NCBI RefSeq assembly: GCF_013177315.1
Contig: NZ_CP053661.1
Location: forward strand, 1,550,001 to 1,614,000
Source: Thermoleptolyngbya sichuanensis A183
Lineage (GTDB): Bacteria; Cyanobacteriota; Cyanobacteriia; Elainellales; Elainellaceae
DNA: 64,000 nucleotides
Reading direction: 5' to 3'
This document shows positions 37,613 to 60,857 of the stretch, one piece after another; positions within the stretch are counted from its first letter, which is position 1, and each line of letters opens with the position of its first letter. Position numbers and translations under genes: made by a program. Under the pieces are notes generated by a model. It searched no databases, was not told the origin of the DNA, and saw only the letters and a list, made by a program, of their open reading frames with translations.

Positions 37613-39172
37613 CTACGGTAACCATCGCGGTCGTAGCCCTGCCACCGCCAATGGCTGGGGGGCGACTTTTTGGGGATTGCCCTCGTCGTCAAGCTGTAGG
37701 GGCAAGAACCAGAGGCGGCTGGTGGCGATCGCCCGTCCGTCGCTGCCCTGAGCAATACCTTCCTCAGTGTTATCTGAGGCGGACACCACCTGATCAAACA
37801 GCAGCCCCAATCCATCCGGGGCCAGCGCGATTTGGATATCCCGCTGGATGGGCAGCTTGAGCAAGTCAGTCCGAATCCCAGATTTTAGGTTAACGGCCAC
37901 GAGATAGGGCTGTTCGACGTAAATATCCCCTGGCAGGCGGGTGGAAACCAGACAGTAGAGTAGCGAGTTTGTAGGATCAAACTGGGCGGTGAAAATAGAG
38001 CCGTCGGTGGTCAGCAGTTCCTTTTCTTGCCCCTGATTGGTGACCAAAAAGAGCGATCGCGTCGGGTTCTGCGGGTCGCGGTTAAAGCGCACCATCGCCG
38101 CCGCCGCGCCATCTTTGCTAAAGCTCAGCGCTAGGCCATACTTTGGCAAAAAGTCCAGCGGCTTGCCCTCTTCGGCTGCATCTTCCTCTGGCGTGAGCGA
38201 CAGGATTGCCATGCCTTCGCCCTGGGCCATGGCCAGCGTTTTGCCGTCGGGGGCAATCACAAAGTCCCCGCCCGGTTCAGTCGGCACGGGCTTGGCAGGC
38301 TCACCAGGCTCGATCACCCACAGCCCAAACTCGGCCGGATTTTGCCGATTGACCCGCTGCACGGCGATGCGCTGCCCGTCGGGCGACAGGTCAAATTTCA
38401 AATTCTGGTACTCATTGTCGCCCAGCACCAGTTGCACGATGCCCGCGGGCTGGGGGGCGCGATCGCTCCTCACTCGTTCTCCCGCTTTGATTTGGCTAAT
38501 GGTGGGGGCGGGTGCTTCCGGCAGCAGCCCCGTGGTGACCGTGTAGAGAAACGGGCTAATATCGTCGGCGCGATGTTTGCGATCGACAGCTGAGAACAGG
38601 ATGCGATCGCCCTCTGGATACGGCTCGTAGTCGAAAATACCCAGATCCGCCGGGGTGAGAATGGTCTTTTCGTCGCGGGTCAGGTTTTGCAGCACCAGCC
38701 GCCCCGCCTCGTCGCCCTCCGCACCCAGATACACAAAAGCGCGATCGCGCGTTTTGAAGCTGCTTTCAAAGGGTTGCAGCAGGTTGGTATCGGTGGACTG
38801 ATTGAAGCGATCGCGGGCCCCTTGAAGCCGCACCTGATACTCGGTTCCGTAGGGCGCTGGGGTATCGAGCGTGTAGGCCATGCGCCGCCCCGCCCAACTG
38901 ATCTTGCCCGACAGCGGCGGCTCAATTCGCAGATTTTGCTCCACGCTCTGGCGATCCATCGGACGGCTAAAGGTCATCAAAAACGCCCGATCTTCCGCGC
39001 CCACCTGCCGCCCGTCCCAGCTAAAATCGCGCACCCGTGGCGAAGCATGGTCGCCCCCCGCCAGCAGCAGCCCCGTCAGCACCAGCAGCACCGCCATCAT
39101 CAGCCAAGCCACCCGGTCGAGCGGCTGGAGCCAGCCAGAGGAACCAGTAGGGGGGGCAATGCGACGAACCAT
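37613..39172 (-). CDS. Membrane-anchored PD40/WD40-like propeller protein with Ig-like domain
   Basis: 519 residues. A single N-terminal membrane segment (VAWLMMAVLLVLTGLLLAGG, about 20-40) is followed by an SbsA-type Ig-like domain (FLMTFSRPMDRQSVEQNLRIEPP) and then repeated TolB/PD40-like blades (FDLSPDGQRIAVQRV, FVIAPDGKTLAMAQG, LSFSKDGAAAAMVRF, IALAPDGLGLLFDQV). It is probably exported and membrane tethered, and may bind protein or cell-wall ligands. Function unknown; conserved in cyanobacteria as a hypothetical protein. It stands alone, with no operon partner. Confidence 0.8.
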   Translation of the reverse strand: MVRRIAPPTGSSGWLQPLDRVAWLMMAVLLVLTGLLLAGGDHASPRVRDFSWDGRQVGAEDRAFLMTFSRPMDRQSVEQNLRIEPPLSGKISWAGRRMAYTLDTPAPYGTEYQVRLQGARDRFNQSTDTNLLQPFESSFKTRDRAFVYLGAEGDEAGRLVLQNLTRDEKTILTPADLGIFDYEPYPEGDRILFSAVDRKHRADDISPFLYTVTTGLLPEAPAPTISQIKAGERVRSDRAPQPAGIVQLVLGDNEYQNLKFDLSPDGQRIAVQRVNRQNPAEFGLWVIEPGEPAKPVPTEPGGDFVIAPDGKTLAMAQGEGMAILSLTPEEDAAEEGKPLDFLPKYGLALSFSKDGAAAAMVRFNRDPQNPTRSLFLVTNQGQEKELLTTDGSIFTAQFDPTNSLLYCLVSTRLPGDIYVEQPYLVAVNLKSGIRTDLLKLPIQRDIQIALAPDGLGLLFDQVVSASDNTEEGIAQGSDGRAIATSRLWFLPLQLDDEGNPQKVAPQPLAVAGLRPRWLP

Positions 39173-39512
39173 AGCAATCCGGCAGAAAATTACGACATTG
39201 CCTACCTTAGCAAAAGGAGGGGTTAGGGATTAGGGGTTAGAGGCAGGGTTTGCCGAAATTGAGTGAACCTCAAAAGGCAGCAGGATAAAAAGCCCCGCCT
39301 CCATATCCTGGCTTGTTGTACGCTATTTCCCATCAGCCGCTTGTTAACTTTATGAGATTGCCAGATTTCGGCACTGGTTTCTAGAAAGGAGAATAGATAT
39401 CTAAAGCATCTGCCGTACAAAGACTTTAGGCGATTTTGACTTCGGACTGCGAAATGTCTGTCCGCAAGGACTCTGTTAAGCTCATCCTCGCCTAGCAGTC
39501 CAGTGTCATTTT
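39173..39512. other. Intergenic region, no supported gene
   Basis: A 97-codon minus-strand frame (39516-39223) has no recognisable motif and atypical composition, and I do not call it. Nothing else is seen. Confidence 0.4.
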
Positions 39513-40041
39513 TCACAGAGCATTAGCTTCAAATGTTTGAATCAGTTGATATTCTGAATCAGGATTTTTCCTGTCCTGTTTGTATAACTCAACGCGCAAG
39601 CTTTTAATGTTTCCTTTTCTGAAGGATCTATCAACTTCCTCGTCATAGCTGTAGCGACCTATAGGATAGAATGAGTTCTCGCTATCAAGCCAATATGAAA
39701 GGCCAATATGAAAGATTGTCATCTCTCGCCAGTCCCTCTTGTATTCCTTCAATACTTGAAGGTTCATGTTTCCATCCAGTATAAGACTCAACCCAATATT
39801 TTATACCGTATGGATATCTAAGAAACCCGGCAGGATTAAGTTCTACGCGAGTCAAAGGTCTGTTGAATGCGATGATCAGCTCATGATCATTTCGTGGTGA
39901 AGCATCAGGAATTTGTCGCAAGTATGCCGATACAATTTGAAGCTGTTGTGAGTTGGCTATGGCTTTATCAGGTACAGCTATAGAACCAATAATAAGCAGC
40001 AAGCAGATGAATGCTACTGAGACAATAAAATTGCGTAACAT
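39513..40041 (-). pseudogene. Secreted hypothetical protein gene, frameshifted by a 13-bp duplication
   Basis: ATG at 40041. A signal peptide (MLRNFIVSVAFICLLLIIGSIA ... ANS) is followed by a region with ELIIAFNRPLTRVELNPAGFLRYP. The frame is intact to DDNLSYW and then stops at 39685 because the 13-bp unit CTTTCATATTGGC is present twice (39689-39714). Deleting one copy continues the frame as LDSENSFYPIGRYSYDEEVD to the stop at 39513: 516 bases, 171 residues. Without the deletion the two halves appear as separate overlapping frames. No family is recognised. The G+C content is lower than that of neighbouring genes, suggesting acquisition. Confidence 0.8.
39689..39714. repeat. 13-bp perfect tandem duplication causing a frameshift
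   Basis: GCCAATATGAAAG is present at 39689-39701 and 39702-39714. Replication slippage between these copies could restore the gene. Confidence 0.95.
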
Positions 40042-40166
40042 GGATAAACTCGCAATTGACAGCTCTCTTAAGATTCCCTGATATGAATGTTGTTGAACTT
40101 CAGAATATAAACTTTTGCACTCAGTAAGTCATAATTACAATCCCAACCCCCTAACTCAAACCCCTT

Positions 40167-41519
40167 ATGCTTCCTGCGGCGCGACTGTATCAATTGATTC
40201 TGGCTGGAACGGGTGCGGGACTGGCGATCGCCCTCCTGCTGTCTGGTCAGACTCGTCCCTCTGGGCTGGCGATCGCGCTGGGGCTGACGCTGCTCTACGA
40301 CGGGGTGGTGCTGGGGCTGGGCGTGGTGGATGCCCGACGGGGGCGATCGCGGCGGGTGTCCGTGGCGCGGCGGCCGTTAGACAAGCTCTCGATTGGGCGC
40401 GAAAATCCGGTGCATTTGACCGTGACCGCGGGCAACGCGCCTGCATTGATCAAACTGCGAGACGACTACCCGACCGACTTTGGCAGGCCGCAAGCGGAAG
40501 AACCCCTGGCGTTTCGCGAAGCAATCCAATGTGAAATCGCTCCCCAGGAAACGCGGGAAATCACCTACACTGTTTTCCCAAAGCAGCGCGGAGTCTACGC
40601 CTGGGGCGATCTCTATCTGCGACAGCTTGGGCCCTGGGGGCTGGCATGGCACGACTGGCGCATTCCCCAGGCGGCTTCCGTGGCGGTCTATCCCGACCTG
40701 ATTGGTCTGCGGGAACTGTCGCTGCGGCTGACGCTGCAAACCAGCGGCAATATCCGCCGGGCGCGGCGCATGGGCATGGGCACGGAGTTTACGGAACTGC
40801 GGGACTACAGCGCCGGGGACGACCTGCGGTTTGTGGACTGGAAGGCGACGGCCCGCAAAAGTCATCTGCTGATGCGGGTGTTGGAGCCAGAGCAGGAGCA
40901 AACCCTGGTGATTTTGCTGGATCGGGGGCGATTGATGACGGCGCAGGTGGCGGGGCTGGCGCGGTTTGACTGGGCGCTGAATGCGGCGCTGGCGCTGGCG
41001 CTGGCGGGGCTGCATCGGGGCGATCGCGTCGGGGTTGGGGTCTTCGATCAACAAATGCACGCCTGGATTCCGCCAGAGCGCGGCGCACACCAGTTACCAG
41101 AACTGCTGGCTCAGCTCACGCCCATCGAGCCTGTATTCCAGGAGCCAGACTATCTCAACGCCGTGACCACCGTCGCCCAGCGCCAGACCCGCCGCGCCTT
41201 GGTGGTGCTGCTGACCGATATCATAGACCAGACTGCTTCGGCAGAACTCTTCGGCGCGATGGCTCAGCTTGCACCCCGTTATCTGCCGTTTTGCGTGGCC
41301 CTGCGCGATCGCCGCGTAGACGACCGAGCAAACCACCCCGCCGAAGACGTGCAGACGGCCTATAGTCGCGCTGTTGCCCTCGATCTCTTGGCTCAGCGGC
41401 AGCTTGCCCTGGCCAAGCTAAAGCAGCGCGGCGTGCTAATCCTAGACGCACCTGCTGATCGGATCAGCACGCAACTGGTTGATCGCTATCTCCAACTCAA
41501 AGCCCGAAATCTTTTATAG
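40167..41519 (+). CDS. DUF58 domain protein, membrane-associated
   Basis: 450 residues. Two N-terminal hydrophobic segments (about 8-26 and 32-52) are followed by a beta-rich domain, then the DUF58 signature GMGTEFTELRDYSAGDDLRFVDWKATARKSHLLMR, then a von Willebrand A-like fold (VILLDRGRLM, a MIDAS-like segment). In many bacteria DUF58 proteins are encoded with MoxR ATPases and help assemble or activate membrane or periplasmic complexes; no MoxR gene is adjacent. Solitary gene, start ATG 40167. Confidence 0.88.
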   Translation: MLPAARLYQLILAGTGAGLAIALLLSGQTRPSGLAIALGLTLLYDGVVLGLGVVDARRGRSRRVSVARRPLDKLSIGRENPVHLTVTAGNAPALIKLRDDYPTDFGRPQAEEPLAFREAIQCEIAPQETREITYTVFPKQRGVYAWGDLYLRQLGPWGLAWHDWRIPQAASVAVYPDLIGLRELSLRLTLQTSGNIRRARRMGMGTEFTELRDYSAGDDLRFVDWKATARKSHLLMRVLEPEQEQTLVILLDRGRLMTAQVAGLARFDWALNAALALALAGLHRGDRVGVGVFDQQMHAWIPPERGAHQLPELLAQLTPIEPVFQEPDYLNAVTTVAQRQTRRALVVLLTDIIDQTASAELFGAMAQLAPRYLPFCVALRDRRVDDRANHPAEDVQTAYSRAVALDLLAQRQLALAKLKQRGVLILDAPADRISTQLVDRYLQLKARNLL

Positions 41520-42927: not shown

Positions 42928-44111
42928 GAGACTGTCCTATGGGGTTGAGAAGGATGTGGCGAGGGCGATCGCCCCTACAGAAAAACTTGGCAAACCCAAA
43001 CTGGCACGTACAAGCCAGCGGGCTTCTGGGAAAAGCAGCTATGGCTATTAAAATACCTGAGCGACCTATTCGCCAAATGCCACTGCCAAATGCCGCTGCC
43101 AGAAACCAGCGCCAGAAACCCAAGGGCCATCAACTTGCCAAATGGCTTGGATCTCCGCCAATGGCTTGACTTGCCTAGTAACAAATCGTAACAGGAATTC
43201 GGTTGCCTACACTAAAATGGATGCCGGTTTTGTTTGTGCCGGAGGTTCGCGTTGCTGGATGCGGCGGAATATTCGGATACAGCGAAATATAGTGTCGCGA
43301 ACCTTAACCTTTTCCTTCACTGACAAATGCAGGGGTTTACGTGAAACTATAGGGACTGGAAACTATAGGGACTGGAAATGAACCGGGTGCATCGGTGTAT
43401 CAGGGTGCATTGGCCGTCCATGAAGTTTGTACAGAAGTTTGCACAAAACTCGCACAATGCTAAAAACCTGTGGCATTTTTCTAGGTTTTTTGTATGCTGA
43501 TGAGTAAATTTTGTCTCAGGAGTCGCTCACTTGACGCAGTTTGCTAAGAGAAGAAGATGACTGGGATAAGAGAGATTGACGTAGCATAGACTGGCGTGGC
43601 CCATCATGGAACTCAAATGCAAAACTCAAATCAGGACTTTTGTTCGGAGGACACGTTGAGGTTGCTCATCCAGCAGTTAATGCTGATAATAGGTGTCCGC
43701 CTGTGAAGGTGTCTGCCTGTAAACATCCGCCTGTAAACAAATGTCCGCCTGACGGGTCTGCTCAATTCTGCTCAATGGAGTAGTGCCTGGAATATGCAGG
43801 GTTCGAGGGGTTTACGAAACGTGCTTCTACCCGCACTGAGTTTTCTTGAGCATGGGTTGAGTCTTTGTTGGTGATTCGTTCGGTGATTTGTCGGTGAATC
43901 GTTGGGTGAATCGTTGCTTGATAGCATCTGAGGTCAGCTTGCTGAGCTTAGATGCTGCTTTTAGAAGCCGCTTTGGGAGCCTGGATATGGTAGGTGCTAA
44001 AGCCTGTTGGAAGTTAGTCTAGCTGGTCTTACAAGGCTACGTGATGCCGCCTGCTGGCATGGGTCGATTTAGAAGATGTCTTGATAACGTTGAGTTTTGG
44101 GGAAGTGGGCC
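42928..44111. other. 1.2-kb gene-free region with short tandem repeats
   Basis: Between divergent pdhA and ftn2. It contains repeated CCACTGCCAAATG/CGCCAGAAACC units (43077-43125), two copies of ACTATAGGGACTGGAA (about 43346-43378), an A/T-rich inverted repeat AAAAACCT...AGGTTTTT ending in T6 (43462-43491, terminator-like), repeats of GTCCGCCTGTAAA (about 43690-43760) and GGTGAATCGTTG (about 43873-43920). I find no convincing protein gene. A promoter pair and perhaps a small RNA ending at 43491 would fit. Confidence 0.5.
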
Positions 44112-59610: not shown

Positions 59611-60857
59611 GTCAGCGTGACGATCGTGCGCGGGTAATAACTATCTGGGAAGAACCTTGGGAAGAGTCTTGGGAAAAGTCTACAGAGAAATCTACAGGGA
59701 ACAATCTGCGAAAAGCCTGGGTAGTCCGGGCAGATAGGTGGCTAGCGCAAAACCGCTGTAGGGCAGAGCGATTGGACAGGCTAGGGCGATCGCTCTAGCG
59801 TGAAATAGCCTGGTACAAATCTAAGAACACCCTCTTTCCACATCAAGCCCACATCAAGCCTGTATCAAGCCCACAATTGGCCTTTGGGGGCTAGCTTGGG
59901 CAACCCGATGCGCTGAACCGACTCATTGTATCGACTGAAAACCCAATTGGCACGGCACCCCGAAATCCCAACGACACCCTGCTGCTGAGTGCCAGTTTAA
60001 GTCTAATCACAGCTTAAATCTAGCGAGAGTGCCGAAAGCTGTCTGTTGGGACAGAACGTTTTATAAGCTGCATCTGGACGGAGATAGCCTAGGCATTGTT
60101 TTATAGCTTTCTAGGTCGTTGATTGCCCTGAGTCGATCCCCCTAAATCCCCCTTAACAAGGGGGACTTTAGACTTTTTAGGTCGTTGATTGACTTGAGTC
60201 GATCCCCCTAAATCCCCCTTGACAAGGGGGACTTTAGACTTTCTAGGTCGTTGATTGACTTGAGTCGATCCCCCTTAAATCCCCCTTAACAAGGGGGACT
60301 TTAGACTTTTTAGGTCGTTGATTGACTTGAGTCGATCCCTTTAAATCCCACTTCAAAAGGGGGACTCCCGGAGCGGTTTGACCCGGTTCCCCCCTTGTTA
60401 AGGGGGGCTAGGGGGGATCAAAGGGTTTTAAAACATGCCCTAGCAGTCAAACCCCAGGCATGGATGTCGAGCGAGTGTGTCGAATGGGCAGGGGGCGGGG
60501 TCTGTTTTTTGGGATAGCGCGGGCCGCCCCCATAAATCCTCTGGGCTAAACATGCCCTGATCTACAAAACCGATGACGCTCCCTGACGTGATCTAGAATG
60601 CCCCGTCAGCGGGCAAGTCTATCTGGGAATGCCCAAATACGGTTTGGCCTTGCTCAACGGGGGAGGTGTTTATCCCACAGGGCAAGCAGGGTCAAGGTTC
60701 GGAGAGGTGCGCGTGGAACCACCGGCCAAACCGCAGCGTTGACGAGGGCCGCAGCGGCTTAGCGGCTTCATCATGCAGCAGATTTGGGCAAATTTGATAG
60801 GACGGATTTGATGAGGCAGATTTGATGGGGCAGATTGAGACGGATTAATTGAACAGA
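59611..60857. other. 1.25-kb gene-free region rich in repeats
   Basis: It holds TTGGGAAGAGTC-type short repeats (59636-59705), a HIP1 site at 59786, the 66-bp tandem array (60113-60379), a CCCCCCTTGTTAAGGGGGG hairpin (about 60390-60408) of a kind common in cyanobacteria, and GATTTGAT/GGCAGATT repeats (60775-60855). No gene I can support. Confidence 0.55.
60113..60379. repeat. 66-bp tandem repeat array with internal hairpins
   Basis: Four units beginning AGGTCGTTGATTG start at 60113, 60179, 60245 and 60312 (period 66, 66, 67). Each contains GAGTCGATCCCCCTAAATCC followed by CCCCCTTAACAAGGGGG, a near-perfect hairpin. The last unit is diverged (CCCACTTCAAAAGGGGG). There are no unique spacers. 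Confidence 0.92.

What the first reader, a model, noticed from the sequence alone, without database searches (positions are those of the whole stretch)
39513..40041. Secreted protein gene switched off by a 13-bp tandem duplication
Deleting one CTTTCATATTGGC copy fuses the two overlapping frames into a 171-residue protein with a signal peptide. The duplication is perfect and could revert by slippage, so this may be a reversible on/off state.
Basis: seen in the sequence. Interest (0 to 1): 0.5.

Follow-up and report, generated by a model that had tools for sequence, protein, structure and literature searches.

The report
Orphan gene broken by tandem duplication
A small, probably cyanobacterial gene with no relatives found looks broken by a 13-letter doubling, but doublings of this kind are scattered through this genome, so it is most likely an ordinary decayed gene and not a genetic switch.

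Summary
A perfect 13-bp tandem duplication (39689-39714) separates two overlapping minus-strand frames of 118 and 92 aa; reading one copy gives 171 aa with a signal-peptide-like start. Statistics favour one former frame, mainly for the first part: random 13-bp deletions at low-GC noncoding sites gave such a join in 0 of 1244 trials; the tail alone is weakly coding-like.

The reversible-switch reading has no support. No credible homologue was found. The gene sits in a ~950-bp, ~40% GC stretch not found at either flank in the same-genus genome.

Above all, such duplications are background here: 118 perfect ones of period 10-40 in 464 kb of this genome, 88 outside ORFs of 150 aa or more (0.78 per kb, so about 0.7 expected in this stretch). 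E. coli K-12 had 0 in 300 kb. A two-copy repeat in an orphan, without allele data, best fits a recently frameshifted, weakly constrained gene. Rare reversion, as in gudB or phnE, is possible but untested.

The parts
39689..39714 (-). perfect 13-bp tandem duplication, two copies
39685..40041 (-). 118-aa ATG frame with signal-peptide-like N-terminus; upstream part of the interrupted gene
   Evidence: coding-like codon use
39513..39791 (-). overlapping 92-aa frame; its last 57-60 codons are the probable former C-terminus
   Evidence: weakly coding-like
39216..40166 (.). low-GC (about 40%) stretch whose flanking homology to the same-genus genome G001 stops on both sides; the gene lies inside it
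39418..39505 (.). about 88-bp dispersed repeat (3 other places in this genome, 76-83% identical over 58-88 bp) next to the second frame's stop
37613..39172 (-). flanking conserved 519-aa protein (weak Big_5 Ig-like match, below the Pfam cut-off)
40167..41519 (+). flanking conserved DUF58 protein

Best explanation
An orphan gene of about 171 codons for a small, probably exported protein of unknown function, in a low-GC stretch between two conserved genes, was frameshifted by a recent 13-bp tandem duplication. The duplication is one event of a genome-wide mutational process that makes perfect two-copy duplications of about 10-17 bp, probably by replication slippage or another copying error. Frame-disrupting ones persist where selection is weak. 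As it stands the locus can make at most a 118-aa protein whose last five residues are foreign, and it is most likely a young pseudogene. Shown: the duplication, the two frames, no homologue in the collections searched, the genome-wide background. Inferred: former coding of the tail, export, loss of function, slippage as the mechanism.
For: Duplication and frames. Coding ancestry: an ATG ORF of 118 aa or more arose in 1.75% of 2000 Markov copies of the 951-bp stretch; random 13-bp deletions gave a joined frame of 171 aa or more at 0 of 1244 low-GC noncoding sites and 92 of 7213 noncoding sites in all. The tail staying open 57 codons has chance probability 0.033; the head's codon score lies at the 36th percentile of held-out low-GC genes and the 99.5th of wrong frames. 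Background process: 88 perfect pairs in 112.8 kb outside ORFs of 150 aa or more, 22 of 88 with a period that is a multiple of 3; 30 in 351.2 kb inside, 23 of 30 with such a period. By the method this genome has 86 outside and 31 inside, E. coli K-12 0 and 0 in 300 kb. Period 13 is near the mode (14 of 88 at 13, 16 of 88 at 14). A 16-bp pair in this window (43343-43378) is single-copy in G001 in an alignable stretch.
Against: No homologue, so the 171-aa ancestor is unproven. The tail's codon score is only at the 11th percentile of true frames and the 85th of wrong frames, and 8% of shuffles reach it. In a looser control joining is not enriched: 6 of 64 frame-disrupting duplications (this locus among the 6) would join a frame of 120 aa or more, against 11.9 expected from random nearby deletions (75 of 405). 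The AlphaFold model of the read-through was too poor to judge (mean pLDDT 46.6, one sequence). The cause of the duplications was not tested.
Confidence: 0.72

Rival explanations
1. Reversible on/off switch: the two-copy allele is an OFF state that returns to ON by slippage at high frequency and is kept by selection, like a phase-variable gene.
For: Perfect head-to-tail copies. Precedents in which a copy is lost often: gudB at 10^-4 in a rocG mutant (PMC3681913, passages) and phnE by 8-bp deletion between direct repeats (PMC4759930, passages). A secreted product would suit it.
Against: Only two copies; the same class of duplication is a genome-wide background at 0.78 per kb of noncoding DNA; no relative found, so no recurrent or conserved switch site; no allele data.
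Confidence: 0.07
2. The 118-aa frame is the real, intact gene; the downstream frame is open by chance (or is a separate overlapping orphan gene, or is reached by ribosomal frameshifting), and the duplication only altered a tolerant C-terminus.
For: The head frame scores as coding and ends in two tandem stops. The tail is only weakly coding-like.
Against: Tail openness has chance probability 0.033 and the join is rare at low-GC noncoding sites, 0 of 1244.
Confidence: 0.13
3. Neither frame was ever a gene: both are chance open frames in low-GC intergenic DNA.
For: No credible homologue.
Against: A 118-aa ATG frame has a chance of 1.75% in such a stretch; codon score of the head, reached by 0.2% of shuffles; signal-peptide-like start (by eye).
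Confidence: 0.05
4. Assembly or sequencing error that doubled 13 bp.
For: Tandem repeats can cause assembly errors (PMC6868369, seen only as title and start of abstract).
Against: 26 bp is shorter than a sequencing read; not a homopolymer; similar duplications occur in three other genomes. No reads were seen.
Confidence: 0.03

Closest known systems
Cryptic gudB of Bacillus subtilis 168
   Same: A perfect short two-copy repeat (9 bp; PMC3681913, passages) keeps a gene inactive.
   Different: gudB's repeat duplicates three residues in the active centre without a frameshift; related strains have a functional gene and activation was measured (10^-4 in a rocG mutant). Here 13 bp shifts the frame, no intact relative was found, and loss of a copy is untested.
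phnE of E. coli K-12
   Same: A short direct repeat frameshifts a gene; an 8-bp deletion restores it (PMC4759930, passages). Flagged as pseudogene in the record seen.
   Different: phnE has a known transport function and its restoration was selected in the laboratory; this is an orphan.
Slipped-strand phase-variable genes
   Same: Tandem repeat at a frame transition, possible exported protein.
   Different: PMC3711429 (passages) called clusters phase-variable if they had five or more frameshifted homologues, characteristic repeats and a function already tied to phase variation. This locus has no homologue and two copies; for unclustered orphans that paper lists errors, orphan pseudogenes, overlapping orphan genes or programmed frameshifts.

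Membership tests
Phase-variable (slipped-strand) gene | tandem repeat at the frame transition | tested here: met
Phase-variable (slipped-strand) gene | homologues with repeats at a corresponding site, or known phase-variable function | tested here: not met
   no credible homologue:
Phase-variable (slipped-strand) gene | both alleles present in a population, reversible | not testable with these tools
   one genome per species, no reads
Frameshifted pseudogene | frame-disrupting indel inside a former coding frame | tested here: inconclusive
   indel real; coding ancestry supported by statistics only, with a looser control against
Frameshifted pseudogene | intact homologue elsewhere (the usual proof, not part of the definition) | tested here: inconclusive
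   none found, but other strains of the species are not held
Secreted protein | N-terminal signal peptide | tested here: inconclusive
   basic start, hydrophobic run and AIA site read by eye; no predictor available

The most novel reading that the evidence does not exclude
Bacteria of this group carry hundreds to over a thousand perfect two-copy 10-17-bp tandem duplications, and the frame-disrupting ones form a genome-wide store of gene inactivations that a single slippage event can undo; this locus would be one member.
Probability: 0.1. Interest if true: 0.5.

Novelty: new member of a known kind. Interest (0 to 1): 0.15.

Why it matters
The locus matters little by itself: an orphan gene with a frameshift. 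What could matter is the setting. Short perfect tandem duplications are dense in noncoding DNA of this genome and of three others of its class that I sampled, and absent from the E. coli K-12 sample. That points to a lineage mutational habit that could be measured, and it cautions against reading a single two-copy repeat here as a switch.

Tried and rejected
Homology. The first half (P0001) was searched in Pfam, NCBIfam, PHROGs, PDB sequences, plasmids, viral and genome contigs, the own genome, 60 relatives and 388 class genomes; the second half (P0002) in Pfam, NCBIfam, PHROGs, the own genome and genome contigs only; the frameshift read-through (P0003) in Pfam, phages and 36 genomes of the order. 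The genome- and viral-contig scans find close relatives only; they met 75, 21 and 14 pattern matches, none confirmed. Weak hits, dismissed as chance: in relatives and class genomes E 1.2e-4 to 0.0098, 31-35% identity, frames mostly of about 410 codons, and in the own genome E 0.33. Pfam names the own-genome one a methionine gamma-lyase; the others look the same by length and aligned range, not tested one by one. Also dismissed: 4r8z at E 0.31, PHROGs at E 0.015-0.47. DNA of the stretch: no plasmid match.

Other. AlphaFold on the read-through: mean pLDDT 46.6, so no fold search was made; the second structure job was not used. Rfam: none in 39000-40400. Promoter-like sites 3 against 2.3 in shuffles; terminator-like sites 3 against 0.8, all on the strand opposite to the gene, not pursued. 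Allele state in G001: BLAST alignments spanned 0 of 11 window duplications; hand alignments around 5 of them gave one clear single-copy case, 43343 (gap of 17 against a period of 16), the rest not alignable at the repeat; automatic flank placement for 29 sites in the window, L074 and L077 placed 5, none clean. I dropped the argument that imperfect copies bound the rate of copy loss: in a steady state they do not. One search also found one perfect pair in the Markov copies of the G040 sample.

Full report
What is there. The window lies in a 5,525,100-base single-contig genome. At 39689-39714 two exact 13-bp copies stand head to tail. On the minus strand an ATG frame (39685-40041, 118 aa) stops directly after the duplication, in two stop codons; its last five residues come from the second copy read out of the old frame. 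A second frame (39513-39791) overlaps it and runs to 39513. The protein starts with a basic, then hydrophobic segment ending in AIA that looks like a signal peptide (by eye).

Was it one gene? In 2000 Markov-1 copies of the 951-bp stretch 39216-40166, 1.75% had an ATG frame of 118 aa or more. A frame stays open 57 codons, the tail's length, with chance probability 0.033, and 109 codons, the head's, with 0.002. Random 13-bp deletions at noncoding sites (300 bp either side free of ORFs of 150 aa or more) produced a joined frame of 171 aa or more in 92 of 7213 trials, and in 0 of 1244 at sites with GC of 46% or less; the sites are not independent of each other. With a codon model trained on half of 55 low-GC frames from this and three other genomes of the class, the head scores like a gene (36th percentile of held-out genes, 99.5th of wrong frames); the tail is weaker (11th and 85th; 8% of shuffles reach it). 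A looser control goes the other way: of 64 frame-disrupting duplications outside long frames, 6 (this locus included) would join a frame of 120 aa or more, against 11.9 expected from random nearby deletions. A join is therefore not by itself evidence of a broken gene. I hold the 171-aa ancestor as likely, not shown.

Relatives. No credible one was found: Pfam 0, NCBIfam 0, genome contigs 0 for both halves, viral contigs 0, plasmids 0, phages 0. With the first half, 5 of 60 relatives and 6 of 388 class genomes matched, the own genome counted in each; the others were weak partial hits to frames mostly of about 410 codons, which I read as the methionine gamma-lyase-like enzyme that Pfam names for the own-genome hit. 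In 36 genomes of the order only the own genome matched the read-through. In the same-genus genome G001 (630 contigs, 85% complete) both flanking genes exist at 86-88% identity, on different contigs. Homology stops at 39215 and resumes at 40167, and what lies beyond each gene there is different; next to DUF58 there is a Uma2 gene. The stretch is about 40% GC against about 60% in the flanks. So in the data at hand the gene is an orphan in an insert or breakpoint region.

The decisive context. I sampled 464 kb of this genome (20 stretches of 20 kb and the window). It holds 118 perfect tandem pairs of period 10-40; 88 lie outside ORFs of 150 aa or more (112.8 kb, 0.78 per kb) and 30 inside (351.2 kb). 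The period is a multiple of 3 in 23 of the 30 inside and 22 of the 88 outside. Twenty Markov copies of the window gave none. Of the 88 outside, 82 have periods 10-17, with the mode at 13-14, and 67 have 2.0-2.3 copies (the lower limit of 10 was my choice). The same count gave 0.63 per kb in G001 (21 in 33.2 kb), 0.25 in G003 (22 in 86.5 kb) and 0.59 in G040 (58 in 98.7 kb). A second counting method, used with E. coli K-12, gave 86, 21, 22 and 57 outside for these four and 0 in 300 kb of E. coli, 56 kb of it outside ORFs. A 951-bp unconstrained stretch here is thus expected to carry about 0.7 such pairs; one was found. Scaled to the genome this is about 1,400 pairs (an extrapolation). A 16-bp pair in the window (43343-43378) is single-copy in G001, the one clear case of 5 sites aligned by hand. 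The shortage of frame-disrupting pairs inside long frames is what purifying selection would give.

How it works. The simplest account is a copying error (slippage or similar; inferred) that doubled 13 bp in a gene under weak or no selection, leaving a truncated product. Loss of a copy by the same error is possible: gudB in B. subtilis (9-bp repeat; PMC3681913, passages) and phnE in E. coli K-12 (8-bp deletion; PMC4759930, passages) are restored this way under selection. That makes the locus cryptic in principle. It does not make it a switch: nothing shows repeated switching, conservation or selection. By the criteria of PMC3711429 (passages) it would not count as phase variation; for unclustered orphans that paper lists errors, orphan pseudogenes, overlapping orphan genes or programmed frameshifts, of which the last two are not excluded here.

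Literature. The listed papers (15 of 53; 12 of 22; 9 of 9; 10 of 22,719; 8 of 54) showed none on abundant 10-17-bp two-copy duplications in cyanobacteria, by title and start of abstract only; PMC8619395, on microsatellites in Leptolyngbya-like genomes, was not opened. Precedents were found. This is no proof of novelty.

Verdict. Observation confirmed; the break is plausible; the switch is unsupported; low interest. The genome-wide duplication habit is the more interesting by-product.

Noticed in passing
G000 sample (window, L073-L092), L093-L112, L113-L132, L133-L152; control L153-L158: Short perfect two-copy tandem duplications (period about 10-17) are dense in noncoding DNA of four genomes of one class (0.25-0.78 per kb) and absent from 300 kb of E. 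coli K-12.
   Followed up: partly
window 43343-43378: A perfect 16-bp tandem duplication that is single-copy at the aligned place in the same-genus genome G001.
   Followed up: yes
window 39418-39505: About 88-bp dispersed repeat with three other copies (76-83% identical over 58-88 bp) in this genome, beside the broken gene's end; no Rfam match.
   Followed up: partly
window 60107-60366: 66-bp unit repeated about 3.9 times (92% matches); parts of that area match many contigs of G001.
   Followed up: no
L078 4199, L079 6938: Other frame-disrupting duplications (16 and 11 bp) that interrupt potential frames of 312 and 227 codons; since joins are no commoner than in the control, they may be chance.
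   Followed up: no
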